Source: Ulota crispa (lineage: Eukaryota; Streptophyta; Bryopsida; Orthotrichales; Orthotrichaceae). Taken from it: a stretch of DNA of 64,000 bases. Position 1 is the first letter of the stretch, and each line of letters begins with the position of its first letter. The position numbers and the translations under genes were made by a program. Below the pieces are notes generated by a model. It was not told where the DNA came from and made no database searches. It worked only from the letters and a program-made list of their open reading frames with translations. The DNA is taken from the NCBI GenBank assembly GCA_963920765.1, contig OY987243.1, positions 30,875,060-30,939,059 on the forward strand, in the 5' to 3' direction. Shown here in pieces: positions 715 through 63,155 of the stretch.

Positions 715-3700
715 ATGTGTGTAAGTGCTTGGCAGATCAATCAAGGTGCGAAGAGGACTCTTCCTAGCAAAACCAAAGCATCAAGGAGTTTATTTTTTGC
801 ATCGAAGTCACTGTCATCTAAGGAAGGGCTCACACAGCTTGAGGTGAGATTTGTTTCTAAACATCCCTTACTAGGCTGATAAACTTACTAATGGTAAGCT
901 GATGTTAGGATAATAGATCAGTATGATGTAAAACTAATATTAATTCTCATGCTGATTCAATGGTTATTTGATAGTTACAAGTGTAATATTCGGTTACAGC
1001 CAATGACACTGGCTTATTAACGTTTCCCATGAGGACTATATGAGTCAAGTGTCTGTTATCTGTTTAGAAAGTTTGTGAATCTCTTTTGTGATGTTTTCTA
1101 ATCAATACATACATGGCTCTATTGCCTAGAGGATTAGGACTGTCCTCATTTTGCAACGGCGTTGTGCATCAGAACCAAAAAATCGACGAAGCAAGCGATG
1201 AGTTCGTTGCATGGGTGGACAATGTGAGAAAAGATGCACTGAATGAAGGAGTGAGTGATGAGGTGCTGAAATGGGCCCTTGAAGACGTGACAGTGTCCAA
1301 GGACTCTATAATGCGTAGAAAAACTGCGCCAGAAGTGAAACTTACGCTGGACGCGTATCTAAAGAGGTCGTCATAAAACACTCCCCTCCGATGAGATTGA
1401 CAAAGTTTTTATTGGATTTGTATTGTCTTCATATTGAATGAATATTGGTGTAACTCAAGTTGTTATTAATAACTAGTGTAGGTATCCGTCGGTCCGACGG
1501 GAGACAAATTAAATAATTTCAAACCCAGTTCCACAAAATGTTTCTCACATAGTAAAACATTTGTTGTTTGTAATAAAACATTTTTTGTTTTTTGGCCACG
1601 CCATAAAATAATTTTGGTTTTTATTCACGCAGTAAAAGGATCCATTTTTTTGTTATTACTCTCACAATGAAAGGATCTATTTTTTTGTTTTTACCAACAT
1701 AGTCCAGTTTACTCATGTAGTAAAAACAATTACGCGCACAATCCAGTTCATACATGCAGCAAAATATTTTTTATTTTTACCCATGAGTTTTTTACCCTCA
1801 TGGTAAAAGGATCACTAAATGGGTAAACTGAATTCTGTTATTATAGTAGATAGTGTGATGTTAACGTCTTTGGCGTCAACGTTAGTGCCATTGACGCTGA
1901 CTTGATCTTATGTTGTTATGAGCATTAACTTGACGTCGTCTTAAAAAGTTCTCCTAATATTTACTGATCTTCGGTTAGATTAACAATAATTTTTTATTAA
2001 CAACTTTAAGAACCTAATCGGGGATTTTCGATTGACCTCTTGCTCTTCAACTAAAGGATGCACGCTGTTTGTGGAGACATGTGTCTTTTCTGTCTTTTAA
2101 GAGTGGTACTTATTGTTTCTGAAAGTTTCTGATTGTGGATGTTGAAAATTTCAATTACAGAATGGTGGTCGAACAAAGGGTGTCAGCTGGTGCATCGCGG
2201 TTTAAAGAGCACTCGGAGTTGCTTACTGAGGTTTCTCAGAAATTCGGCGTCCCCGTTCAGTTTTTGGTGGCAATATGGGGTATCGAAACGAAGTAAGCTG
2301 TCTACTGCAGATAATTTAGGTCTCCTGAAAACTCCTGAGTATATTCAAGCTTGAATCTCAACTGCCTGCGTTGTCTTGATGCTTACAGCTATGGATCTTT
2401 CACGGGAAACTGGGACATTATTCAATCCCTAGCAACGATGGGCTTCTCCGAAGTGCTGGTATGTATTCCGTCTCATACACAATATGAATGTAAATTCATT
2501 TTTCTGTAATTTACATAAACCCTGGATTATATGGCTGTTTTCGGTATCATTGAATTGCACTCACCACAAAGGACTCCTCATTAGATGGACACAGGTTTTA
2601 ATATTAAGTCAAAGGCTATTTGATTCATATAATCGTTGTATTGAGTATATGCTAAGGGGCGCTTCACACTATGTCCCACGTCCGACTGATATCTGAGAAT
2701 CTGATTAGTGTAGAGCCAAAAATTGGGACACTAAGTCCCAAGTTCCCCGTCCCGGTTATTGTTTGCTTACGTGGCAGCACTTTTTGGAAGTTTTAGCACC
2801 AAGAAGGTGAAACATCACACAAGGTTTGAGTTGACTATTATGCTAGCCCCAATTCTCAGCCCAATTCCAACCAATATTTTTGCATAAAATATTCATGGTC
2901 TTTTTTAGTACTTCTTTTAGCCCTTAATAACCCAATGAATAATAACCTCATGAATGAAGCTGGGATCTCAACTTGAGGTGGCACTTGCACAGATGGGACG
3001 TGGGACGTAGTGTGAAGCGCCCCTAAGTTAATGGTATTGTCCAGTAAATGGTGTTGACTGAATGTAAATTTGACCTTAATGTCCTTGGTAGTTTGATAAT
3101 AATGGCAACTATCAAGTTCACTCTAAATTCACACTAACATACCGTAATTTCAATTGTAATCTAATATTTGATTAAATTTACATAAATTTCTCATTAATAC
3201 TTTTGTGAATGTAGGCGAGGATCTTTGGAGATGCTTGTAGTGACGAACAGTGGCCTGGCGTACTTTCCATTTAGCAGAATGAGTTCCATGTAAATATGGA
3301 ACACATCAATGAGTTTTGTTGGACTGACAAGCGACTGGAAGTTGTATCCAGGAAGGCCGTAGAAAATACTTCCGAGGGGAGTTGCTTGAGGCTCTGCTAA
3401 TGCTGCAGAATGGGACAGTAGAGCGAGGAGCAGGGCCTCATGGAGAAAAGAGATTACGTGGTTCATGGGCTGGCGCTATGGGGCAGTGCCAATTCATGCC
3501 TACCAGCTTCCGTGATTACGCCGTAGATTATGACGGTGACGGTCGCAAGGGTACAGTTTCATCCCTTTTCCAATTTCTCTTGTATCAACCAACCCTTGCG
3601 GTACTTCGTTTTCGGCCCCTCACTTTTGATTATTAAGGGGAATTACAAATAGGGGCATGAAAATGAAAAAAATTACAGATAGGGGCATAGTTTCAAAATA

Positions 3701-5638
3701 ATTACAAATAGGGGCACAATTTCAAAATAATTTGTAAATTTTTATGAATTTGTTGGTTTGGACATTGGTTGAGTTAGATACATCACATTAAATGTTATCA
3801 AACTTCCAAAAAGTTTAGAAGTCTCTCCAAAAGTTGCCATTCCCTTTACTAAAGTTTCTTTATGTAGGCTTGATTTGGAGAAGCCTTTAAGTTTTTTGAA
3901 AGTTAGGTAACATTTAATGTGATGTACCTAAAATCAACCAATTTCCAAACCAAAAAAATTTACAAAAATCTATAAAATATTTTGAAATTGTGCCCCTATT
4001 TGTAATTATTTTGAAACTATGCCCCTATCTGTAATATTTTTCATTTTCATGCCCCTATTTGTAATTCCCTGATTATTAATGTATTTTGAAGCCTTGGCTC
4101 AACTCTTTGAAGATCCACCTCTCAGAGTATGAAATTGTTTTGTTTGCCCAACAGATATCTGGGAATCCAAAGCAGATATCTTTGCATCAATCGCCAACTA
4201 CTTCAAAGAGCATGGTTGGAAAACAGGTGGTCCAATCTTCCAGAAGGTAACAATCCAAAACTTGGGAAACACGTAGTTAAAAGTGGACAGTCGCATGGCA
4301 GAAACCGTTCTATCGTTTGAGAAAGATGGAATTTTTTTCTCATGGAACAATTTCATTACAACGTTAAGCAACAAAGTGAAATGGACATGAAAGGGTACAA
4401 CCTGTGTACACAAACAGAAGTTGGCTTACACAAGATTGCAAAGATATTTAGTGTTAGCGTTTGGTGGAAGTAGGTGAACATATTCGTTACGTTGATCATC
4501 TAATAAGACCGACCATTTCTACTTTTGATTCCTAAATCCTAATACAAATCCTTGTATATAATAATTCTAAGCAACTTTGAACAGAATTTTAAAGTTCTAA
4601 TCAGTAATGAATCATAGATGTGAGCACTTGACAGAAGAGACGAAACAATCATTAACTGGAATTGCTTTGCAGGTTCAAGTGCCAAAGAAGTTGGACAAAA
4701 ACCTTTTAGGTATAGGACTTGTACAGAGCGTTCTAGATTGGGAGCACAAGCATGGGGTTCATTTGAACCCTGGAAAAGCACCTCCTCTTCCTCCAGACGA
4801 GATGGCGAGCTTGGTACAGTCCTCCACCTCTAAACACTCGTTTCAAACCCTTTTCTAATCCTTTTCTTTTATTAACCCCAAAGTGGTAAGAAGATACTCC
4901 GCTTGGGAAACTGATAGTTGATTGTACTCCCTCTGTCCCTCTAAAAATGTCCAAAAAGCTTCCTTGCGAAGGATTAATAGCGTTTTTAGTCTTTGTGCTA
5001 GTGACACATGCATTCTAGAATCAATACACCATCTACCAAATGCATGCAAAATCTCCAGCTTTGATGTCGCTGTTTGGGCACCCAAATTCCATGCAAAAAG
5101 TATTATATTTGTGCTTGCTGCCAGCTCCTCATTATTGATGATTTAAAGATTAGTAGCAACAATGGTACCTCGTATGGGCAAGGCCAAGCTTGCTAGGAGA
5201 GGAATGCTCTCCAATTGCTCAACTTGCCCCCATGAGATCATTGAGCATGGCAAATGCTTTCTCAACGTTTGAAATCAGCAAAAGGGAGCTTTTTAGTGGT
5301 ACAAGAAATTTGTCTGATTTGGAGCTTTTTAGACGGACAGAGGGAGTAGTCGATAGTAATAAATTCCAAAACATTTATCAATTCTCAAGCAGCAGTTTTT
5401 TCTTAACCATGTGAACCACGAGAAGTTGAGATCTGGTTTTCTTAACTTTGCTCACAGCTCCGCTTGTTGATTGCAGTTGATGCCTAATGGACCTAAAGGG
5501 GATGCTTACCTTGTGTGCGACAATTTTCGAGTTATTCTCCGGTACAATACAAGTGACCTCTACGGCTTCGCAGTGTGTGAATTGGCACGGCTGATTGAAG
5601 AGAGAGCCTCGAATCCTTACCCAACTCCACAATTGTAA
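715..5638 (+). CDS. MltB-type lytic murein transglycosylase (SLT_2 family), intron-containing
   Basis: Spliced model: 715-843, 1173-1366, 2161-2292, 2389-2458, 3352-3550, 4155-4246, 4673-4813, 5477-5638; 1119 nt, 372 aa, all junctions GT-AG and in phase. The product matches bacterial lytic transglycosylases of the MltB family, which cleave the MurNAc-GlcNAc bond of peptidoglycan to give a 1,6-anhydro end. Visible motifs: AIWGIETNYG, whose Glu (residue 150) is the catalytic acid; GSWAGAMGQCQFMPTSF (212-228); AVDYDGDGRKDIW; IANYFKEHGW; and a C-terminal NFRVILRYN (335-343). It resembles the alphaproteobacterial subgroup and lacks a C-terminal peptidoglycan-binding domain. The first 43 residues, from a separate exon, are Ser/Lys/Arg-rich with few acidic residues, like an organelle transit peptide; targeting to a plastid is inference. 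An alternative start at 1113 (ATG in frame with exon 2) would give 349 aa without that exon. Three MITEs lie in the introns. I am sure of the family and less sure of exon 1. Confidence 0.88.
2656..3023. mobile_element. Tourist/PIF-Harbinger-like MITE in intron 4 of the MltB-like gene
   Basis: 368 bp. The TIRs begin ggggcgcttcacacta (left) and end tagtgtgaagcgcccc (right). The flanks carry the 3-bp direct repeat taa (2653-2655 and 3024-3026), as expected for PIF/Harbinger TWA target sites. A larger relative with a similar terminus lies at 37609-38492. Confidence 0.75.
3636..4070. mobile_element. hAT-like MITE in intron 5 of the MltB-like gene
   Basis: 435 bp with very long inverted arms (about 130 bp). 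The left end reads aggggaattacaaatagggg and the right end is its complement finishing gtaattccct. The flanking direct repeat gattatta (3628-3635 and 4071-4078) is an 8-bp target-site duplication, typical of hAT elements. The arms contain repeated aggggca motifs separated by A/T runs. Confidence 0.8.
4927..5346. mobile_element. Stowaway/Tc1-mariner-like element, copy 1, in intron 7 of the MltB-like gene
   Basis: The ends are ctccctctgtccctctaaaa on the left and the complement ending ggacagagggag on the right, flanked by TA on both sides (4925-4926 and 5347-5348). This is the classic Stowaway terminus and target site. The 420-bp body is shared with a longer copy at 25473-26060 in the HMG-CoA lyase gene. 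No intact transposase is visible. Confidence 0.85.
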
Positions 5639-46224: not shown

Positions 46225-47440
46225 CGTTACACGAATCTCAACCACAAGTCGAAGTTCTGGACTCAAAACACACCAAATACGAGAGCAAAAAACCGAAAAG
46301 GTATAAACACAAGCACAATACGACTCCAAGAGGAGAAAACACAACTCCAACTAGCCGGGAACTGGAAGAATCCAAAAGAGACTCCCACAAGCGCCCAAAA
46401 CCCTAAGCCCTAAAATCACGGTCATAGGTACGACCCCACGGCCCTAGGTAACACCACACGGTCATAGGCAAAACCACACGGTCATGCAGAATCCGCCCCC
46501 ATAACCGCGGAGCTGAAACTATCTTCCTCCAAATCTTCAGTGCCACCTCAGTTCCTCCCGTGCCAACTGGGCCTTTTCCGCAAGTATTCGCTGATCACGA
46601 GGCTGCACGAGTGCACTCCCCTTTTACTGGTGGAGAAAGGCCAGCACTCCAAATTTCTGCTTTCTCTCCCTCGGCCGCTTGTCCTGTTGTTTTCATTTTC
46701 ATTTTCATTTTCCTCGCGCTTGTTGCACGGATTGCAATAGACAACTGAAATGCGGAGCAAATTTGGACGGAATTGCCAGGTTTTTTTTGCGCAATGAAAA
46801 GCTTGTCAGTTGTATGAGGAGTGCAATGTAGTTTCTGCGGTTTTTTAGGTTGTCGTGTGCTGTTGTAATGGGCGATCAGGACGCTTGTATTGATTACGCC
46901 GATGCAAATTGTGGCATGTACCGATTAAGTTCTATCACTGTCGTTTTGTTGCATTTCTTCTCCTGTCTGTTTCTTTCTTTGAACTTAGGTCGTGAATTTC
47001 GATGTGAGCTTAAGCTACTTTGCGAGCTCTTGTTTTAAGGCGTTTCAATTGATGTATTGTGGCCATATTGTGTGCCGATTGAGGAGTCTGCGTCGTTGAG
47101 GAAAAGTTCTAATGCTACGATGTTAGCTTGTCGATGCGCTTTGCGTACATTCAGCTTAATTTCTTAGAATGTATGTCGTAAATTTTGATGCGAGCTTAAG
47201 CCTTGTATTTAGGATTTTATTTGATGAGCAGACATGGCGTATATGCTTTGTGTGCATTTTAGTAAGCTTTGCTTGTGGTATGCTTGACAGGATTGGAGTA
47301 GGAGGTAAGAGATGGCTGGCTGCAGTTGTAACTTGAGCTCTGCATCTGGTTTTCGAATATTGCAAGATCAACTTCGGTGTTGACATTCGTCGGGCTACAG
47401 TTTTTCCGCAGCTTGAGCTGTAGTAGTCTTTTTCCTGGTC
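46225..47440. promoter_or_regulatory. Shared upstream region of the divergent Cgr1-like and M28 peptidase genes
   Basis: About 1.2 kb between two start codons on opposite strands. A telo-box (aaaccctaa) lies at 46398-46406, about 175 bp upstream of the Cgr1-like ATG, with ccctaa repeated just after it. A site II-type motif, tgggcc, lies at 46568-46573. This pair is common in plant promoters of ribosomal and ribosome-biogenesis genes. At 46415-46490 four degenerate tandem copies of a roughly 20-bp unit (cacggtcataggta) occur. No intron is evident in the coding parts, but the M28 leader may contain one. Confidence 0.5.
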
Positions 47441-50191
47441 ATGTCTTCTGCTGCCAAGATGTTGAGAAAGAAGAATACCAAGTCTGAGTCGGGTCTGAAG
47501 GCATTAGACGACAACGGAGAAGAAGCAGGATTCAACCAGGACGCATCACGGGCAGATATTGCTGATGAGAAGAAGAGGAAGAATTATGTTCCTAATGCGG
47601 TGAAAGCTCCGGCGAAAGACTCTGTCAAGCTCAGCCTGGGTGGACTCCTGGTGCTCACCTTGTTTTTCACGCCGTTGATCTGGCAAGCCAGGCGATACAT
47701 GTACCAGAAGCATGTCACGCCGTTACCCGAATCGGCGCCGCTGAACAAATTCTCGCAAGAGAGAGCGATGAATCACATCCGGGCGCTTGCTGTCGACATA
47801 ACGGGCCGCCAGGAGTCCACGTCTGGTCTTGAGCAATCGTTTACGTACGTCACCGGCGTGATAAACGACCTGAAAACACGAGCACGCTCGGATCTCAGCG
47901 TGGAGATGGACGACGCGCGAGTGGACGGGTCATTCAATTTTCGCGACTTCCTCGGACATCCAGTGTCCAACACATACCAAAACCACCGCAACCTGGCCGT
48001 GAGGATTGCAAGGAAAGACGCTCTACAAGGGGAGGCAACAGTGCTGGTGAACGGGCATCTGGACGGGCCTTTGGGATCTGCTGGAGCAGCCGATTGCGCC
48101 TCGTGTGTAGCAAGCATGCTGGAAGTGATGAGGTACATCGTGGATACAAACTGGCTCCCTCCTGCTCCATTGGTGTTTCTTTTCAACGGAGCAGAGGAAG
48201 TGTTTTGCTTGGGCGCGCACGGGTTTATCACTGCTCATCGGTGGAAAGATGCTCTCGGGGCAGTCATCAACATTGAAGCGTCGGGTGCGAGCGGGCCAGA
48301 CCTCGTGGTGCAATCGGGGCCCGGGACATGGCCTGCTAGGGTTTACGCCGAGAGTGCAGTGCATCCCATGGCGAACACCGTGGCGCAAGATGTCATGCCG
48401 CTCATCCCTGGCGACACTGACTATCGTGTATTCACAAAAGATTTCAGCGACATTCCTGGCCTGGATATCATCTTTGTCCTGGAGGGCTATGTCTACCACA
48501 CTGCTTACGACACGGCAGACCGAGTTTCACATGAGAGTTTGCAAGCGCGAGGGGAGAATCTCATTGCATTGCTGGAAGGATTCACCACCGCACCGGAGCT
48601 TAAAAACTCGTCTATGCGAGCTTTGCATCCCATCTCTACAGAGAAGCGACCTATCTTCTTTGATTTCTTTGGCATCTTCATGATCAGCTACTCGCAATCT
48701 GTGGCGCTGGTATTGCATGCCTTGCCCCTGGCGATCGTGTTTCTAGTGCTGAGGCTGGGATCGGCCACCGAAGGAGCACCTGCGACTGTTGATGCTCGCA
48801 TGAGAGCTATTCTGAAGGGCGCCGGCCTGCAGTTCGTGGGAGCCGTGCTCAGCTTCATCCTGCCTATAACGGTGGCCATCCTCCACCTCATAGTCTTCAG
48901 AACAGCGATGCCATGGTTTGCGCATCCGTGGATATCTTATCTCATGTTTGTTCCTGCGTGTGTGGCGGGATTTCTGACTCCGCGAGCATTGCTCTACGAC
49001 AAGGCTATGTCGGAGCAGGAGGAAAATGATCTCGACTGGAGTGCTCATTGGGGAGGCATTGCGCTGAACGCGGCGTTGGCTGTCTTGTATAAATCTCTTG
49101 GGATCAGTATCGGCTACATGAACTTCTTCTGGTCCTTCCTTATGATCCCCGCGCTCTCGATTATGCGGTGGTGCCAGAAACGCTTCGGGAAGGACTCCCT
49201 TGTGGCCTTCGCTGGGTACATCTTGCCTGGCATGTTGCCCGCGGGTTACATGTGCTACTACTCAGGGATCACGCTCCAACTGATCACAGAGAAGATGGGG
49301 ATGAGTGGTACCTTTCCCCCAATTATCTCCCTTTATGTTGCCGATGTGATCCTGGCTGTGGTGTTTGGAGTCTTCGCCGGTGCCACTGTGGGACCTTTGC
49401 TTCCCGTTCTCGGCAGATGGATTGGGAGACTTCCAGCTCTTCGCATTCTCTGTTGTGTGAGCATCGGCTCTGCATGTCTTTCATCTCTGTTGTTCCCGTA
49501 CTCCTTTCATGCCCCGAAACGGGTGATTTTGACGCATGCGTACCAGACGAATAGCGCAAGCGAAGTGCTCGAATCCGGGTATTCGTTTGCCACCATTGAT
49601 CCTAATCCCATGGACTTTGTGTGGCGGCACTCGCCTGGCGCGATTCGCGCGCTGCACGTCCATCCTCAAGATTCGAGCTTGTCAAAGCCCAACCCCAACG
49701 TGTTCCTCGCTTTGTACCCAATCTCCACGCTTTTGACCTTGTCTCCCGAGATTCCAACATCTCAAGCTGCGCCTGTGGCTACTCCTTTGCCGTTTATTGT
49801 TGTCAACCAAGACTTTGAAGATCGTGAGAAGACGGAGAATCGACGGCGAGTGCACCTGGAGGTTCATATGGGAGCACTGGACCAGGTCTGGGCTACGGTC
49901 ATGAACATCACAGGCCTGCTTGCTGGCTGGTCCATGGTGGATGGGGAGCTTGTACATCCAGACAGCGTGGATGAGAATGGCGTTCCTTCGTACATTTGCC
50001 GTCTGTCTGGTAAGCCGCCAGGAGGCGTCTGGCGCTTGTGGATTGAAGCTGAAGGCCCTGAGAATCTGAGTGTACAGCTTGCAGTGCTGGACCAGGCCGT
50101 GGATGAGAAGACAGCCCAGCTTTCCAGAAGTTTTCCACCCTGGGTGGCTATGGTGGCTGGCTCTACTTATATCTCAACTTACTTAGTCTAG
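47441..50191 (+). CDS. Endoplasmic reticulum metallopeptidase 1-like protein (peptidase family M28)
   Basis: An intronless 916-aa protein. Members of this family are zinc exopeptidase-like membrane proteins of the ER; their plant substrates are poorly known. Order: a polar, charged cytosolic N-terminus (1-60), a first membrane anchor (about 63-82), then the luminal M28 domain. The two-zinc site appears complete: His206 in NGHLDG, Asp218 in GAADCASC, the catalytic Glu252/Glu253 in LFNGAEE, Glu279 in NIEASGA, and His353 in VYHTAYDT. From about residue 410 there are eight or so hydrophobic segments, followed from about residue 690 by a soluble C-terminal domain. Length and order match the plant and animal ERMP1 family (roughly 870-920 aa). 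The ATG fits the family N-terminus. G+C is clearly higher than in the flanks. It ends 512 bp from the convergent ABCG gene. Confidence 0.92.
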   Translation: MSSAAKMLRKKNTKSESGLKALDDNGEEAGFNQDASRADIADEKKRKNYVPNAVKAPAKDSVKLSLGGLLVLTLFFTPLIWQARRYMYQKHVTPLPESAPLNKFSQERAMNHIRALAVDITGRQESTSGLEQSFTYVTGVINDLKTRARSDLSVEMDDARVDGSFNFRDFLGHPVSNTYQNHRNLAVRIARKDALQGEATVLVNGHLDGPLGSAGAADCASCVASMLEVMRYIVDTNWLPPAPLVFLFNGAEEVFCLGAHGFITAHRWKDALGAVINIEASGASGPDLVVQSGPGTWPARVYAESAVHPMANTVAQDVMPLIPGDTDYRVFTKDFSDIPGLDIIFVLEGYVYHTAYDTADRVSHESLQARGENLIALLEGFTTAPELKNSSMRALHPISTEKRPIFFDFFGIFMISYSQSVALVLHALPLAIVFLVLRLGSATEGAPATVDARMRAILKGAGLQFVGAVLSFILPITVAILHLIVFRTAMPWFAHPWISYLMFVPACVAGFLTPRALLYDKAMSEQEENDLDWSAHWGGIALNAALAVLYKSLGISIGYMNFFWSFLMIPALSIMRWCQKRFGKDSLVAFAGYILPGMLPAGYMCYYSGITLQLITEKMGMSGTFPPIISLYVADVILAVVFGVFAGATVGPLLPVLGRWIGRLPALRILCCVSIGSACLSSLLFPYSFHAPKRVILTHAYQTNSASEVLESGYSFATIDPNPMDFVWRHSPGAIRALHVHPQDSSLSKPNPNVFLALYPISTLLTLSPEIPTSQAAPVATPLPFIVVNQDFEDREKTENRRRVHLEVHMGALDQVWATVMNITGLLAGWSMVDGELVHPDSVDENGVPSYICRLSGKPPGGVWRLWIEAEGPENLSVQLAVLDQAVDEKTAQLSRSFPPWVAMVAGSTYISTYLV

Positions 50192-56081: not shown

Positions 56082-58326
56082 TTCTGGCTGGCGTTGTGCT
56101 GAAGTCCGCCTGCAAAAAGCAAAGCTAAATAAAAAACATAATGCTTGGCTCATGTCCGGATTATGCAGTTCTGGTTTTTGGATCAGAAGTGCGGCATCGA
56201 AGAAGATATACCGGGTGTCATGCAGTGGTCGTGGTGAGGAGGATGGCAGGTCTCGAATCTTTGGACGTACTCCGGTGGGCCTTGTTGACCGGGGATGGAG
56301 GGAGCTTGGTTGTCAACGTTGCAACGAGCTTGGCATGCGCACACCTACGGGGCCAAATCTGGGATTGCTGCAGGTTGTTGCGTACCTACCTTACCACCCC
56401 CTTTGCGTGCATGCATGCATGCATGCAGGCCCGCCTGCCCGCCTGCATTCCTTGTTGTTGTTGCTGTTGACACTGGCCTGGTGTTGCTTTTTTTGTGTTG
56501 TGTTGTTTGTTTCTCCTCCGAGCTGTCCTGTTGGGTGTTTGTGTTGGGGTTTTGTAGGACTAGCTAGAATACTCATCCTTTGGCGACGAGCTTAGTTTAC
56601 AGGTTTAGTATTTTAGTTTGACTAGTATTTACTTTGATTGGGTGTGTGAGTGTTACCAAAGGAAACGAGGGTTCCAATAGCACCCAGAAATGCTGCATTT
56701 GGATATTGGATGCAAAATTTATAGGAAAGTTCAGAGTTTTGTTTGGTGGGTGATTGAAAAGTACTTGGAGGTTTAGGTGGTCTGGCAATTCTGGGTTAAA
56801 CCCGTAAGCGTGCAGGTGTCCAATGAATAAAGGGTTTATGTAGGAGCTGGATGAATGGATGAAGTACATCCAAGTATGGTTAAGAAAGCTATTTTTGCCT
56901 GCCTATTTTTCTAGCAATGGTACTTGTTTGATTATTGGGTATTTGGGTGAGCTTTCATGATTCTTTCGTACGATTTGAGTCAGTTTATGTCGAGAATGGA
57001 ACCAAAAAAAACAACTTGCAAAAGGGGAAGATCTCTAGTTAGGCTCTTCAAAAGCAAAAGCTCCAGGTGTGCATGCTTTACCCCTGCACTATTTTAGGGG
57101 TTAATGGAGGTTCAAGTGATGTGGCGATTTTGGGTTAGTGACTACTATGAGGTTTGCCTACCTTATGCCTGGATCTTCATGAAAATTAGTGGATTCTCCT
57201 TTGGAGTAAAATCAAATTGGTAGATTTTGGAAGATCTTTTTTTTTGTGGAGATGTTTCGGGTTGAAGGCCGATGTCAAACAAATTGAAGTTTGTGAAGTC
57301 AAGCTGCAATTTTTTGAGGGTTTCGAATGTGTTGTGTGAAGAGATGGTATGAGTGAAAAACGTGACCTGTCATGTTTTTATTGATTGCCCGTGAGGCTCT
57401 TAGCTTGCGTAAACATTGCTTTGAAGAAAATATTACCACGTGTCCTTTCTATTGGTAGGAGTGACATTACACAAAGTGACACCATTCCACAATTTTCGTC
57501 GTTGCATTCACAAGTATTAGGGCAACCAAAATTGCAAAGGATTTTACTCAAGTGATGTTTACTTTGCGGAGAGAGATTTATAAGGAAGAGTTGTTTTTGG
57601 CATGTGGTATGGGACTTGGTTTATGGACATTTGGGATGATAGAGTGTGGAGGGGTTGTGTCTCTTCGATGTTTAAGTTTCAAGTTTTCATGTACAACTTG
57701 ACGCTTTTTTTTGTTTGTGCATATTTTTTAATATTTCAAACTTTTCTTGAGAATTGCTTCCATCAATTGATCCAATCGCTACTTTTGAACACAATTGATA
57801 GACTTTGGCTGCAACGTAAAGCCTAGTGCTTGTATTCCGTTGAACAGCTTTTGTTCCATCTTACTGACGTTTGAAATGAAGAAAATAGCCATTGTTCATT
57901 TGTTCATGTTTAAAACTCTTCCAGTAGTTGTTTATATGAATCGTGAGCGTTTTCAAAATACAAAATTTGGGTTTGGGTAGGAGTTGTGATGTAGTGGGTG
58001 GATTCTTAACAATCACCCACTACGGACATTATTGTTTTGGTGTTTTATTTGATGAACATAGAGCAAATCAACATTCCCCAATTTTGTTAGAAGCATACCA
58101 GACTTTCTTTTGTTTTTTGCCTTTTACTTTCATTCTTTGTCGTTCCATGAAAAGACAAAAGAAGAAGCCATAGATGTTTGATTGTTGTAACAATCAAATC
58201 TTTGGCAACGTTTATTTATTGTGTAGAAAATAGTATTATGTACAAACTTTGCAAGTGAAATTATACTTTGACACACTTTTTTTCTACTTCCAAATACAAT
58301 TTTTTTTGGGTATTTTTGTATTGAAA
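56082..58326. other. Intergenic region between the divergent ABCG gene and the cysteine-rich gene
   Basis: The first few hundred bases should contain the leader and promoter of the ABCG gene. A (gcat)n microsatellite followed by a gcctgcccgcc run lies at 56407-56447. From 56600 on the sequence is AT-rich with no recognised element. Open frames at 56044-56595 (+) overlap the ABCG leader and have no family resemblance. Confidence 0.5.
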
Positions 58327-61300
58327 ATGACGACAAGTACAAGCAAAGGAACTATCAATCCACTGAGCAAAGTGAGGCAAATGTTGATGGATCCTGCAAC
58401 AAAATGGGACCATATGCAACCAGCACAATTGGCTAAACTCTTTTTAAATGCTGATATTGCTGACCTCAACGATGCATGGGCCAAGCTCAACAAAGTGGAA
58501 ATACAAAATAGATTGTTGGACTTTTTAGAATGGACGCCATCCATGTTAATGGATGCCGAAAAAAGAGAATATCACACTTATTTTCCTATGCTTATGGAAA
58601 TGAACACCACGGATTTCCGATGTGTTTCATGCAGGTATATCTTTACTTAAAACTCAAGAAATATTTAGTTTATTTGATTTATGTCCAATAGGTTTCTCTT
58701 TAATAAGTTAATATTTTCAAAACCTACCAAAAAAAACTCTAAAAAAATCTACTTTTTACCATATTGAACTTAATATGGATTACTCATGTAATTATGAATT
58801 ATGCTCACAATTGTGGATTCTGCAAAACATCACAAAATGATTGATGTTTATGTAAAATATTAGAAGATCTCTTGAGCTTGAGAAAAGCATTGGAAGATCT
58901 CCCATCATTTTTTTTGCATTTATCTCTAAACTCACTTTTAGATCGTTCTTTATGGACTTCACAAAGTTTGTATTTAAGTCATGAGTCGAAATATTGTCTT
59001 ATTAAGGTTTGATTTTGATACTTGGAAACAACATCTTAATGGTTGAAAAATCATAGATACATATATTTTTTGTGGCAGATGAATATTATCTAAATTTCAT
59101 TTTTATTTTTAAACACACTAGTATCAATTCCATTTGCAATTTATAATAAATAAAAATTCGGTTTAAGTGAACTAAAAAAAGAATCTTAGTAGAAAATTGA
59201 TATTGGCCGTTTATTTGAACAAGTATGCCTTGCCCACGCTCTACACAATTTCACTTGCATTATTTCTTGTTTTTTACTATTTGTTTTGTTGTTGCATTGT
59301 TTCTTGCTATTTACTATTTACTTTGTTTAACTTGTTCCTCTCTCTATCTTCCTCTCCCTCCCTCCATAATAGAGAAGTTTTGAATATCCAATGTTAATAG
59401 AAAATTTGAATTTCCTCTGACGAACAAACACTTTGTAGAAATCATTGTTTCTTTTGTTTTTTTACTTATGGATATCAGGTGTGTTCCAACTAATATAGAT
59501 GGTCAAACTTGTCCAACCCATGGTCTACCCCAGTTAGCCTACCAAATGGAGGACTGGTACGCCACCCCTAGTTTGAAATACCTCCCACCTCAAGTCACCA
59601 ACATTCTAGGCGGTGATGGGGGCCTTTGGTTGTGTGAAGGAGGAACCCAACCCCGCGCCCCCATTGAATACACAAGAGCCATTCCTTACGTAGAAACTTG
59701 GGAGGATGAGCTTTTTGAAAGAAATCAATCCATCATGTGTGTCACCAACCCCCTAACCAAGGAGTATTGCTACTTGCCCCCCTTCACTTACAAGCTTAAC
59801 CAAAAATCTGCCATGTTAAGAACAGTAGATTGGGATGTAGACATGGATGACATCATGGCGTGCATGGCATGGGGCTCCGGCTCTCTTTCTAGGCCCTCCT
59901 CTAGAGGAGAGTGTTCCCCCAAAATTACCACCACAAGAAGTGAACCCACATCTCCTAATAGAACTAAAAAAACTCCAAAATCATCTCCCCTATCTCCGTG
60001 CTCTCCTTGTAGCAAATCCAAAGCCTATGCTCCCCCTCCCAAGAAAAAAGCAAGAATGGTATATAAAAAAAAGGTTAGACCATATTGGGAAGATGTACCT
60101 GAGAAGAAGTGTACCGGGGGAAAAATTTATTTTGAACCCAATTGTACCGGGGCCCCTAAAGTGAATCCAAGGTGGACGTGGAACCCAAGGGACAAATTTC
60201 ATCCCTTGCCTTGCATTCGTTGCCACTCAGATTACTGTGCCACCAGGTTTGAACATCCTCAAGAATTTACTGGGAATTTTCCTACGGCCAAAGAGTGGCC
60301 TTGTGCCAAAGGATGTACCACTGACCATGGGTTTGTTGTACCGGTTTATGAAACTCCGGCACCAACCCATCGAGAGTTTGCTAAATTATTAGAGCTTCCT
60401 ATTGAAAAACATAAAGAGCCATGGCTAGTGAAAGGAAACGCCATGCCTATCATGGTTCCCCCTGGTTATAGTGTTCCCAGGTCCCCCAAATATATTGGAC
60501 CCTTAAGTGCGTGTTAACAAAATTTATTAGGAATTTGAATATTCTTTTTTCAAAAAATATTTGCTGTGTTTAACTAAATCAATGCTGCTCATGTGATTTT
60601 GAACTTTGTTTGTAAAATATAGTAGTATCTTGACGTTGAGTTGCATAAGTTTCCCAAGCTTTCACATACTAGATCTCTCAATGTTTAACATACTAGATGT
60701 TTCAAGGTTTACATATTAGATCTCCTAAGTTTTTATAAATTAGATCTCCTAAGGTTATATACATCAGATCTTCCAAGGTTTTTATATTAGATCTCCCAAT
60801 GTTATACATACCAAATCTCCCAATGTTTTACAACTAGATCTTTGAATGTTTTACACACCAAATTGCTCAATGCTTTGTATATAAAGATATGCAAAACATC
60901 AAGAGATCTCCCAATGTTTTACATGTGGATTATTATTTTTGAACTTTGCATTGTCAAAAGCAGTTAAATACATCATATATTTGCATACACAACAAGTAAA
61001 GTACTTGTCATCAATTAATGGACTTTTCTATGACTACAATTTTTTGGTTATATTGCATTGCTTCATTCATAACATTTAACGTGAACATATTTATAAAGCG
61101 TGTTTTCAAAGACATTTTGTTATCTGATAATTTGATGTGTTTATATTTCTAAAAGAAATTACAATAAGTTAAAATTAAAACTTCAAAAAGAAACATGTAT
61201 ATATATTTGTAAATGAATTTTTGACATAAATAACAAGATTGCATAGAATGTTGCCCATACTGTTTTTGTAGGTAATCAAGATTTTAAAGACGATGAACCA

Positions 61301-63155
61301 GTTATCTTGATGGATTTAAACGGCCGTGAAATTGGGCTTGGACAAGTTTGGAAACAAAAACCAGGTGATGTGATGGATTGGACTCCATTAAAAAACTATG
61401 AAACGGCAATAGTTGTAACTTGGAGCATTATTGATGTGGACTTAGAATGGGAGCGTGCACGTTACTTTAACAAAAAACTAAGGAAGAAAAAAATCTTAGG
61501 AAGCAAGGATGTTGGAAAAAACAACATGATGTGTAGTTTGCCTATAAGATGGCCCTCAAGTCTTTTATTGCACCCAAGGGAAGCAAGCGAAGCTATGAAG
61601 TGTCAAATGAACACCAACCATCTTGAAGGGAGGGACAACCCAGCATTTGGAAACCCAACTCTTGCGAGAATCATCAAGGAACAATGTGACGAGGTCAAGC
61701 ACCCAACTCGCCAAGACTCTTGCTCCACGTGCGGCATGTGCTACAACAAGTGCCAGTTTGGTACCTCAAAGAGATACATTGTGATAGCAATGGGCTACCA
61801 TTACTTGAAAGAGTTATTTAAGAGGTTGGAGGAAGACCTTGTTGTCGGCATTTACGAGTCTTTTCTAAAGCAATGGACGTTCAAGAGACTGACCACCAAT
61901 CGTTGTCGGCTCATGCCCGAGAGTCAAGGCAAAACTGGCGTTGCTTTACTAGGAGAAGATCCTCGTGAAATGGCTGTCATTTTTGGAGGATTGGCCATCA
62001 ATGTCAAGCCAGGGAGACAGAAAGATGAGGAGTATTTTGAATCAACCATTTTCTATTGCCCCTTGTAATAATCACAACAACTTCTATCTAACCTCTTTCT
62101 TCAACCTCAAATATGTTTTAATCTCTATTATAAAGCATCTTGTTTTTGTCTCACACCCACAAATTTGAAATTCTTTATTAGAATGAGGGTACAAAGAGGA
62201 CAATGCAAGGTAAGGGAAGGGGAAAAGGGAAGGCATAAAGAAAAACAAGTTGAACGAAACAAACATTAGAAAGAAAGAGAGGAGGAAAGAAGCAAGTGAG
62301 ACAATACAAAATGCAAGCAAGGCATACTTGTTAATTGTGGGACATATATTGCAAGATGCCATGAACCGACAAGTTCTTGAAGTGAAATGTCACATAGTTG
62401 CCAACTTTGAATACCAACAACTTCTTTTTTGCAAGATATAGCTCCAATTTGTGTTTGTAGCTTTCTAAGACCTTGCTTATAGTTACAAAGAGTTCCAACT
62501 TATTAAGGGATATTATGAACAAATCATATAGTTGTTTTGTCTTTATTGTTTACGCTATCTTGCATAGTAAATACACACTTATTTTTTTACACATGATCAT
62601 GTATGTTTGTGTAGGTATTCTAAACAACAATTGCGAAAACAATTCTTATTTCATGGGCGAAAGATTGACCCCACTAATTGCCATCAATTATTCAACTATG
62701 AGATGTGGCCGCCCATTGTTGTACAACCATTTCAAAAACGAGGACAATTCTCCGCCCAAGCAGTGACAAGGAAGTACAACAAGTTTCCTGAAATTGCAGA
62801 AACCATATACGTTGTGAACATAAATTTGGATGAAGACATGGTTCCTACAGGATTTTTTGACCTTCTCTCTCGAATGCCCCAAGACAACTTCCAAGCATTG
62901 CTTGCTAGCTCCATTGCTTTTACTCCCCAGTCCATGGAGCATGCCTCTGCTGAAGGCTTGATAGTTTTCAAAATGGGGCACAGTCCTCACCTTGTAATCT
63001 ACGACGTGTTTTGGGACCGTTGGATTACCACCACATATCCACAACAACAAGAAGGGGAATTAATGAAGCATTGGCAACTTTGTGATGGTGTTTGGAAACC
63101 GGATTGGACTCAACGGAGTGGAAACAATGATCTCTTACTTTCTTTGCATCCTTGA
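58327..63155 (+). CDS. Unrecognised cysteine-rich protein, four exons
   Basis: Model: 58327-58634, 59479-60506, 61272-62031, 62615-63155; 2637 nt, 878 aa, every junction in phase. I do not recognise the family. Residues 1-90 look helical. A putative zinc cluster spans exons 1 and 2: Cys99-x2-Cys102, Cys104, Cys114-x2-His117. A second cluster follows at 348-356 (CIRCHSDYC, with WPCAKGC further on) and a third at 596-606 (CSTCGMCYNKC). Residues about 245-305 are Ser/Pro/Lys-rich with KKKAR and KKKVR, a possible nuclear localisation signal. Segments such as CVTNPLTKEYCYLPPF, VGIYESFLKQWTF and LVIYDVFWDRW vaguely recall the blades of kelch/F-box-associated proteins abundant in mosses; that is a weak inference. 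The exon 3 donor (GA/GTATTT at 62032) is the least certain; reading through would end the protein at 62068. Codon use is AT-rich like its surroundings. Confidence 0.7.
60660..60925. repeat. Degenerate tandem repeat in intron 2 of the cysteine-rich gene
   Basis: About nine imperfect copies of a 25-30 bp unit. The core is tagatctcccaatgttttac, with variants such as tagatctcctaag and caaatctcccaatg. It lies downstream of the exon 2 donor and upstream of exon 3. No function is implied. Confidence 0.75.
62345..62575. repeat. Dispersed repeat shared with an E2 intron
   Basis: This intronic block resembles 12340-12545 in the same orientation. Shared stretches include agctccaat, ctaagaccttgcttatagtta, agagttccaacttatt and atggttgtt-type sequence followed by ctttatt. 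Identity is roughly 70-75% by eye over 200 bp. The preceding exon-proximal part also carries an inverted relation to 62170-62200-type purine-rich sequence that I could not resolve. Confidence 0.5.

What the first reader, a model, noticed from the sequence alone, without database searches (positions are those of the whole stretch)
715..5638. Intron-split MltB-type lytic transglycosylase in a plant nuclear genome
The eight-exon model gives a complete 372-aa SLT_2 protein with the catalytic Glu (AIWGIETNYG) and all main motifs, most like the alphaproteobacterial subgroup. Established knowledge: MltB enzymes cut peptidoglycan. Early-diverging land plants retain peptidoglycan-synthesis genes and, in mosses, a plastid peptidoglycan layer. 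Inference: this may be an old bacterial transfer, or organelle-derived gene, now nuclear and perhaps plastid-targeted, acting in plastid wall turnover or division. Alternatively it could act on bacterial walls in defence. I am not aware of a described plant MltB, but cannot search.
Basis: partly seen in the sequence, partly recalled or inferred. Interest (0 to 1): 0.88.

Follow-up and report, generated by a model that had tools for sequence, protein, structure and literature searches.

The report
Plant copy of bacterial wall-cutting enzyme
A plant nuclear genome, probably of a seedless plant, carries a real, intron-split gene for a bacterial-type enzyme that cuts peptidoglycan, very likely the same kind of gene already reported in moss to help chloroplasts divide, so it is a sound but not new discovery.

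Summary
The 349-aa alternative model, which holds the same whole domain, is a strong SLT_2/MltB_2 lytic transglycosylase (Pfam 4.8e-98; TIGR02283 291.4 bits, cut-off 248.45). The catalytic-position Glu150 is kept. An HMM from 80 bacterial relatives picks exactly seven of 2,735 window ORFs above inclusion, all collinear in this gene.

It is not contamination: a 37-Mb contig, seven introns, and at most 44% identity in the 80 bacterial loci kept. No second SLT_2 gene was found in the genome. The same genome shows class A PBP, MurJ, VanY, MurB, MurE-like and MurF-like exons, so plastid peptidoglycan is the likely substrate.

It is not new as a kind. A moss MltB transcript was listed in 2005 (PMC1079823), and moss MltB is cited second-hand as important for chloroplast division (PMC13075712 citing Utsunomiya 2021). 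The alphaproteobacterial affinity is not supported; the donor is open. Exon 1, transcription and plastid targeting remain unproven.

The parts
715..843 (+). Exon 1 (provisional): N-terminal 43 aa, rich in Ser/Lys/Thr/Arg, transit-peptide-like by eye
   Evidence: Joins in frame to give 372 aa, strong donor; no homology support; alternative start ATG 1113
1173..1366 (+). Exon 2: start of SLT_2 domain (starts at 1113 in the alternative 349-aa model)
   Evidence: ORF 1092-1373 hit by bacterial HMM, E 1.6e-12; splice model
2161..2292 (+). Exon 3: contains AIWGIETN and the catalytic-position Glu150 codon at 2285-2287
   Evidence: E 1.1e-13; GAA codon and Glu150, Glu in 80 of 80 bacterial rows
2389..2458 (+). 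Exon 4: YGSFTGNWDIIQSLATMGFSEVL
   Evidence: E 4.5e-4; splice model
3352..3550 (+). Exon 5: GRRKYFRGELL...GSWAGAMGQCQFMP...DYDGDGRK
   Evidence: E 4.6e-26
4155..4246 (+). Exon 6: DIWESKADIFASIANYFKEHGW
   Evidence: E 2.5e-10
4673..4813 (+). Exon 7
   Evidence: E 3.7e-4
5477..5638 (+). Exon 8: C-terminal exon with stop codon
   Evidence: E 2.7e-11
2653..3026 (.). MITE-like insert in intron 4: 32-nt inverted ends, TAA on both sides
3638..4069 (.). Fold-back MITE-like insert in intron 5 (122-nt arms, 93% complementary)
4925..5348 (.). Stowaway-like MITE in intron 7 (CTCCCTC ends, TA on both sides); two stretches 90% alike near 25.5-26.0 kb
   Evidence: the name Stowaway is recalled

Best explanation
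The window holds a nuclear gene, the only one of its kind found in its genome, of a peptidoglycan-retaining land plant (probably a bryophyte or other non-seed plant) for an MltB-type lytic transglycosylase, the likely equivalent of the moss gene MltB. The protein is inferred to be imported into plastids. There it would cut the MurNAc-GlcNAc glycan bond of the thin peptidoglycan wall between the envelope membranes by the lytic transglycosylase reaction (Glu150 as catalytic acid/base, 1,6-anhydro product), so that the wall can be opened and remodelled at plastid division. Shown here: open gene structure, family, catalytic-position residue, and peptidoglycan genes in the same genome. Inferred: transcript, import, substrate, activity, division role.
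For: 372-aa eight-exon model. Bacterial HMM finds seven collinear exons and nothing else above inclusion in the window. On the 349-aa model: SLT_2 4.8e-98, TIGR02283 above curated cut-off, solved SltB3 at 1e-58. 32 of 35 columns invariant in 80 bacterial relatives are kept, including Glu150 and GSWAGAMGQ-QFMP. All 7 protein matches and all 4 SLT_2 family matches in the 274.8-Mb genome fall in this gene. Same genome: class A PBP, intron-split MurJ, VanY exons, MurE-like and MurF-like exons, MurB exon. Moss MltB in print: transcript and chloroplast-division role cited second-hand.
Against: Plastid targeting rests only on the composition of an exon 1 that homology does not support; the alternative start at 1113 gives a different, shorter leader. 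No RNA evidence. Nine of 62 columns conserved at 95% or more differ (R92, A95, G170, M192, F258, I269, F270, Q271, C333), so activity is likely but not certain. The PF00905 whole-genome search returned no match at E<=0.001; the transpeptidase domain was recognised only from hand-picked exon pieces joined by X. The MurE-, MurF-, MurB- and plant MurJ exons score below the NCBIfam whole-protein cut-offs, as single exons would, though above Pfam's domain cut-offs. MurA, MurC, MurD, MraY, MurG and Ddl were not looked for individually. The moss MltB sequence was not held, so orthology was not tested. The one source seen for the division role words it loosely, calling MltB and VanY homologues of MurJ.
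Confidence: 0.82

Rival explanations
1. Secreted or vacuolar antibacterial lysozyme-like enzyme: the plant uses it against bacterial walls, as Rensing et al. implied when they filed moss MltB under cytotoxicity.
For: PMC1079823 Table 2 category 'cytotoxicity'; such an enzyme would be expected to cut bacterial peptidoglycan as well.
Against: Neither possible N-terminus (MCVSAWQINQGAKRT..., MALLPRGLGLSSFCNG...) looks like an ordinary long hydrophobic signal peptide (read by eye; no predictor run). The genome has peptidoglycan synthesis genes. Moss MltB is cited for chloroplast division.
Confidence: 0.08
2. Bacterial contamination or assembly artefact.
For: The assembly may carry bacterial contigs: C97 and C20 hold uninterrupted MurJ genes, with GC 0.62 and 0.53 around them.
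Against: The gene has seven introns, three with MITE-like inserts, on a 36,975,619-bp contig. The 80 best bacterial loci are only 36-44% identical. Neighbours include genes split into several frames that match eukaryote-like domains.
Confidence: 0.01
3. Decayed or repurposed copy without peptidoglycan-cutting activity.
For: Nine of 62 highly conserved columns differ, three of them invariant in all 80 bacterial rows; long branch in the tree (2 changes per column).
Against: All exons open, Glu150 kept, 32 of 35 fully invariant columns kept, whole domain length matched.
Confidence: 0.08

Closest known systems
MltB of the moss Physcomitrium (Physcomitrella) patens (transcript PPP_2925_C1, Rensing 2005; Utsunomiya 2021)
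   Same: Plant MltB homologue; moss MltB and VanY are cited as acting in chloroplast division, and this genome also has PBP and VanY exons
   Different: Probably another species: the assembly here is 275 Mb with a 37-Mb contig (that the moss genome is larger is recalled). The moss sequence was not held, so identity and intron positions were not compared
TIGR02283 MltB_2 / Pfam SLT_2 (bacterial lytic murein transglycosylases)
   Same: Whole domain, catalytic-position Glu, GSWAGAMGQ-QFMP core, DYDGDG loop; above the curated cut-offs
   Different: Split by introns, 7-residue insert RGAGPHG shortly before the GSWAG motif (alignment), no bacterial lipoprotein signal seen by eye, 36-44% identity to the 80 loci kept
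Pseudomonas SltB3 (PDB 5anz; the organism is recalled)
   Same: Best solved relative, residues 28-333 of the 349-aa model, E 1e-58
   Different: Bacterial soluble enzyme

Membership tests
Pfam SLT_2 (PF13406) | Score above gathering cut-off over the whole profile | tested here: met
   349-aa model: 328.4 bits against 24.3, profile 2-292 of 292
TIGR02283 MltB_2 subfamily | Score above curated cut-off | tested here: met
   349-aa model: 291.4 against 248.45 bits
TIGR02282 MltB equivalog | Score above curated cut-off | tested here: not met
   214.7 against 281.4 bits; PRK10760.1 MltB also below its cut-off, 158.9 against 449
MltB-type lytic transglycosylase | Catalytic Glu in the A-x-W-G-x-E motif | tested here: met
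   Glu150, 80 of 80 bacterial rows have Glu there; its catalytic role is recalled from the Slt35/MltB literature
MltB-type lytic transglycosylase | Cleaves peptidoglycan to 1,6-anhydromuropeptides | not testable with these tools
   Needs protein
Moss-type plastid MltB | Nuclear gene in a plant with plastid peptidoglycan synthesis genes | tested here: met
   PBP, MurJ, VanY, MurB, MurE-like and MurF-like exons found; MurA, MurC, MurD, MraY, MurG and Ddl not sought individually
Moss-type plastid MltB | Plastid import | tested here: inconclusive
   Leader composition fits only if exon 1 is real; no predictor or GFP
Moss-type plastid MltB | Orthology with P. patens MltB | not tested
   No plant MltB sequence was at hand; Utsunomiya 2021 not held

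The most novel reading that the evidence does not exclude
The plastid wall hydrolase of this plant lineage was not inherited from the cyanobacterial plastid ancestor but came by transfer from a proteobacterium- or desulfuromonad-like donor and was recruited to plastid division. Its lying about 250 kb from the PBP gene on one chromosome might reflect linked inheritance.
Probability: 0.3. Interest if true: 0.35.

Novelty: new member of a known kind. Interest (0 to 1): 0.18.

Why it matters
It indicates that a plastid wall-hydrolase gene accompanies peptidoglycan synthesis genes in a plant genome that is probably not the moss already studied. It gives a cleanly placed, apparently single-copy gene for comparative work on when plastid peptidoglycan turnover was gained or lost. 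It opens no new question, because moss MltB has already been studied.

Tried and rejected
Contamination was considered and rejected. The alphaproteobacterial donor was not supported: in a tree of 81 rows the plant branch is long, joins weakly (79/83) beside a 12-row mostly gammaproteobacterial group, and has one Chloroflexi bin and four Desulfuromonadia rows as nearest by path. Holding it together with nine Desulfuromonadia rows and the Chloroflexi bin is not rejected (p-AU 0.107); that group was chosen after seeing the tree. An AU test of the alphaproteobacterial grouping was not run. Cyanobacterial origin: SLT_2 rang in 3 of 14 control genomes and not in Synechococcus elongatus; this is one cyanobacterium only. 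In one search two trial models had the wrong phase at exon 2 and gave stops. The PF00905 whole-genome search found nothing at E<=0.001 although exon pieces are there.

Literature: nine searches of open PMC papers. 'PpMltB' anywhere: 0 papers. Utsunomiya 2021 is not held; I saw its title and citations only. My memory that its abstract reports chloroplast GFP, fewer chloroplasts in the knockout and zymogram activity is recalled, not seen. Seen as passages only: PMC1079823, PMC13075712, PMC12681378, PMC9434261, PMC9954125, PMC4815162, PMC7154730.
Full report
Observation. Exons 715-843, 1173-1366, 2161-2292, 2389-2458, 3352-3550, 4155-4246, 4673-4813 and 5477-5638 join to one open frame of 372 aa and a stop, with GT-AG at all seven introns. 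To avoid building the model towards the answer, I made an HMM from 80 bacterial relatives (the window protein left out, although the relatives had been fetched with it) and ran it over the stop-to-stop ORFs of 15 aa or more in six frames of the whole window (2,735 ORFs). Seven ORFs passed inclusion, all on the + strand, collinear, one for each of exons 2 to 8; the next best had E 1.7. Exon GC is 0.478 against 0.358 in introns.

Uncertain 5' end. Exon 1 lies before the domain and no homology supports it. Its donor is strong (99.4th percentile of window GTs by a rough matrix) but the acceptor is middling (75th percentile). An ATG at 1113 in exon 2 gives a 349-aa seven-exon protein with the whole domain; the family searches and the tree used this form, and the two forms share every residue of the domain. 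The 43-aa exon-1 leader is rich in Ser, Lys, Thr and Arg, with two acidic residues, which would suit a plastid transit peptide; this is inference.

Identity. Pfam SLT_2 4.8e-98 over the whole profile. TIGR02283 MltB_2 is above its cut-off, while TIGR02282 and PRK10760.1 are below theirs. Solved relatives: eight distinct sequences, best SltB3 5anz at 1e-58. Against 80 bacterial rows, 32 of 35 fully invariant columns and 53 of 62 columns conserved at 95% or more are kept, including Glu150 (codon 2285-2287) and the GSWAGAMGQ-QFMP core. The nine that differ are R92, A95, G170, M192, F258, I269, F270, Q271 and C333.

Genome context. The window is C2:30875060-30939059 of an assembly of 274,817,297 bases in 157 contigs; C2 is 36,975,619 bases. 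All 7 matches of the protein search and all 4 matches of the SLT_2 family search fall in this gene, so it appears single-copy; the tool warns that it scores only its best candidates. The same genome has PBP transglycosylase exons at C2:31130062-31130940, about 250 kb from the MltB gene. Downstream frames carry STFK, SLN and KTGT (read; motif meaning recalled), and nine pieces joined by X score PF00905 at 6.2e-34, although the whole-genome PF00905 search alone gave no match at E<=0.001. MurJ is split over three places on C1 (one piece matches TIGR01695 at 1.1e-36). VanY exons are on C4. MurE-like and MurF-like exons are on C6 and C1; a third Mur-ligase match on C4 was not identified. A MurB exon is on C7. 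These pieces pass Pfam's domain cut-offs but, where scanned against NCBIfam, not its whole-protein cut-offs, being single exons (VanY not scanned). PMC12681378 states that a bifunctional class A PBP gene was not found in angiosperms and that among seed plants it was found only in gymnosperms (passages). With a 275-Mb genome, too small for a gymnosperm by general knowledge, that points to a non-seed plant. The species was not identified.

Not contamination. The 80 best bacterial loci of 572 confirmed are 36-44% identical. Introns 4, 5 and 7 hold MITE-like inserts, the last with partial copies 90% alike at 25.5-26.0 kb. Neighbouring ORFs match lipoyl/E3-binding (E2-type), HMGL-like, GH17, M28/ERMP1 and ABC-transporter domains.

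Origin. The IQ-TREE tree of 81 rows leaves the plant protein on a branch of length 2 with weak placement (79/83). Nearest by path are one Chloroflexi bin and four Desulfuromonadia; of the 80 bacterial rows 38 are gamma-, 28 alphaproteobacterial and 9 Desulfuromonadia by title, 5 others. Grouping it with the Desulfuromonadia is not rejected (p-AU 0.107). SLT_2 did not ring in the control Synechococcus elongatus (3 of 14 controls rang). PMC7154730 cites Sato and Takano 2017 that most plastid peptidoglycan genes are not cyanobacterial (passage), so a non-cyanobacterial origin would be in line with print.

Prior art. Rensing et al. 2005 (PMC1079823, Table 2) list P. patens transcript PPP_2925_C1 as membrane-bound lytic murein transglycosylase B, under 'cytotoxicity' (passage). 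Utsunomiya et al. 2021, whose title names MurJ and peptidoglycan hydrolases as required for moss chloroplast division, is not held. PMC13075712 cites it for an important role of MltB and VanY in chloroplast division, in loose wording that calls them homologues of MurJ (passage). The kind of gene and its likely role were therefore known.

Mechanism. Best reading: plastid-imported lytic transglycosylase that opens the plastid peptidoglycan wall for division. Shown: open gene, family, residues, peptidoglycan genes in the genome. Inferred: transcript, import, activity, division role.

Noticed in passing
G000 C97:3365-4669 and C20:63645-64934 (L092, L093): Uninterrupted MurJ genes on other contigs with local GC 0.62 and 0.53 (seven other loci of this genome measured: 0.36-0.50): C97 probably, C20 possibly, a bacterial contaminant in this plant assembly.
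   Followed up: partly
L091 (G000 C2:31126500-31136400): Class A penicillin-binding protein gene split into many exons, about 250 kb from the MltB gene on the same chromosome-sized contig; both transglycosylase and transpeptidase parts seen.
   Followed up: partly
window 2653-3026, 3638-4069, 4925-5348: Three different MITE-like elements sit in introns 4, 5 and 7 of this one gene (TAA-flanked, fold-back, and TA-flanked CTCCCTC-ended).
   Followed up: partly
window 47417-50191: A 924-aa stop-to-stop frame with M28 peptidase and ERMP1 C-terminal domains, unbroken by introns.
   Followed up: no
window 58234-63155: Four long + strand frames (58234-58647, 59384-60514, 61247-62065, 62571-63152) match no Pfam family at E<=0.001.
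   Followed up: no
G000 C4:20041574-20043274 (L095, L096): Exons matching VanY-type D,D-carboxypeptidase, the other wall hydrolase cited for moss chloroplast division.
   Followed up: no
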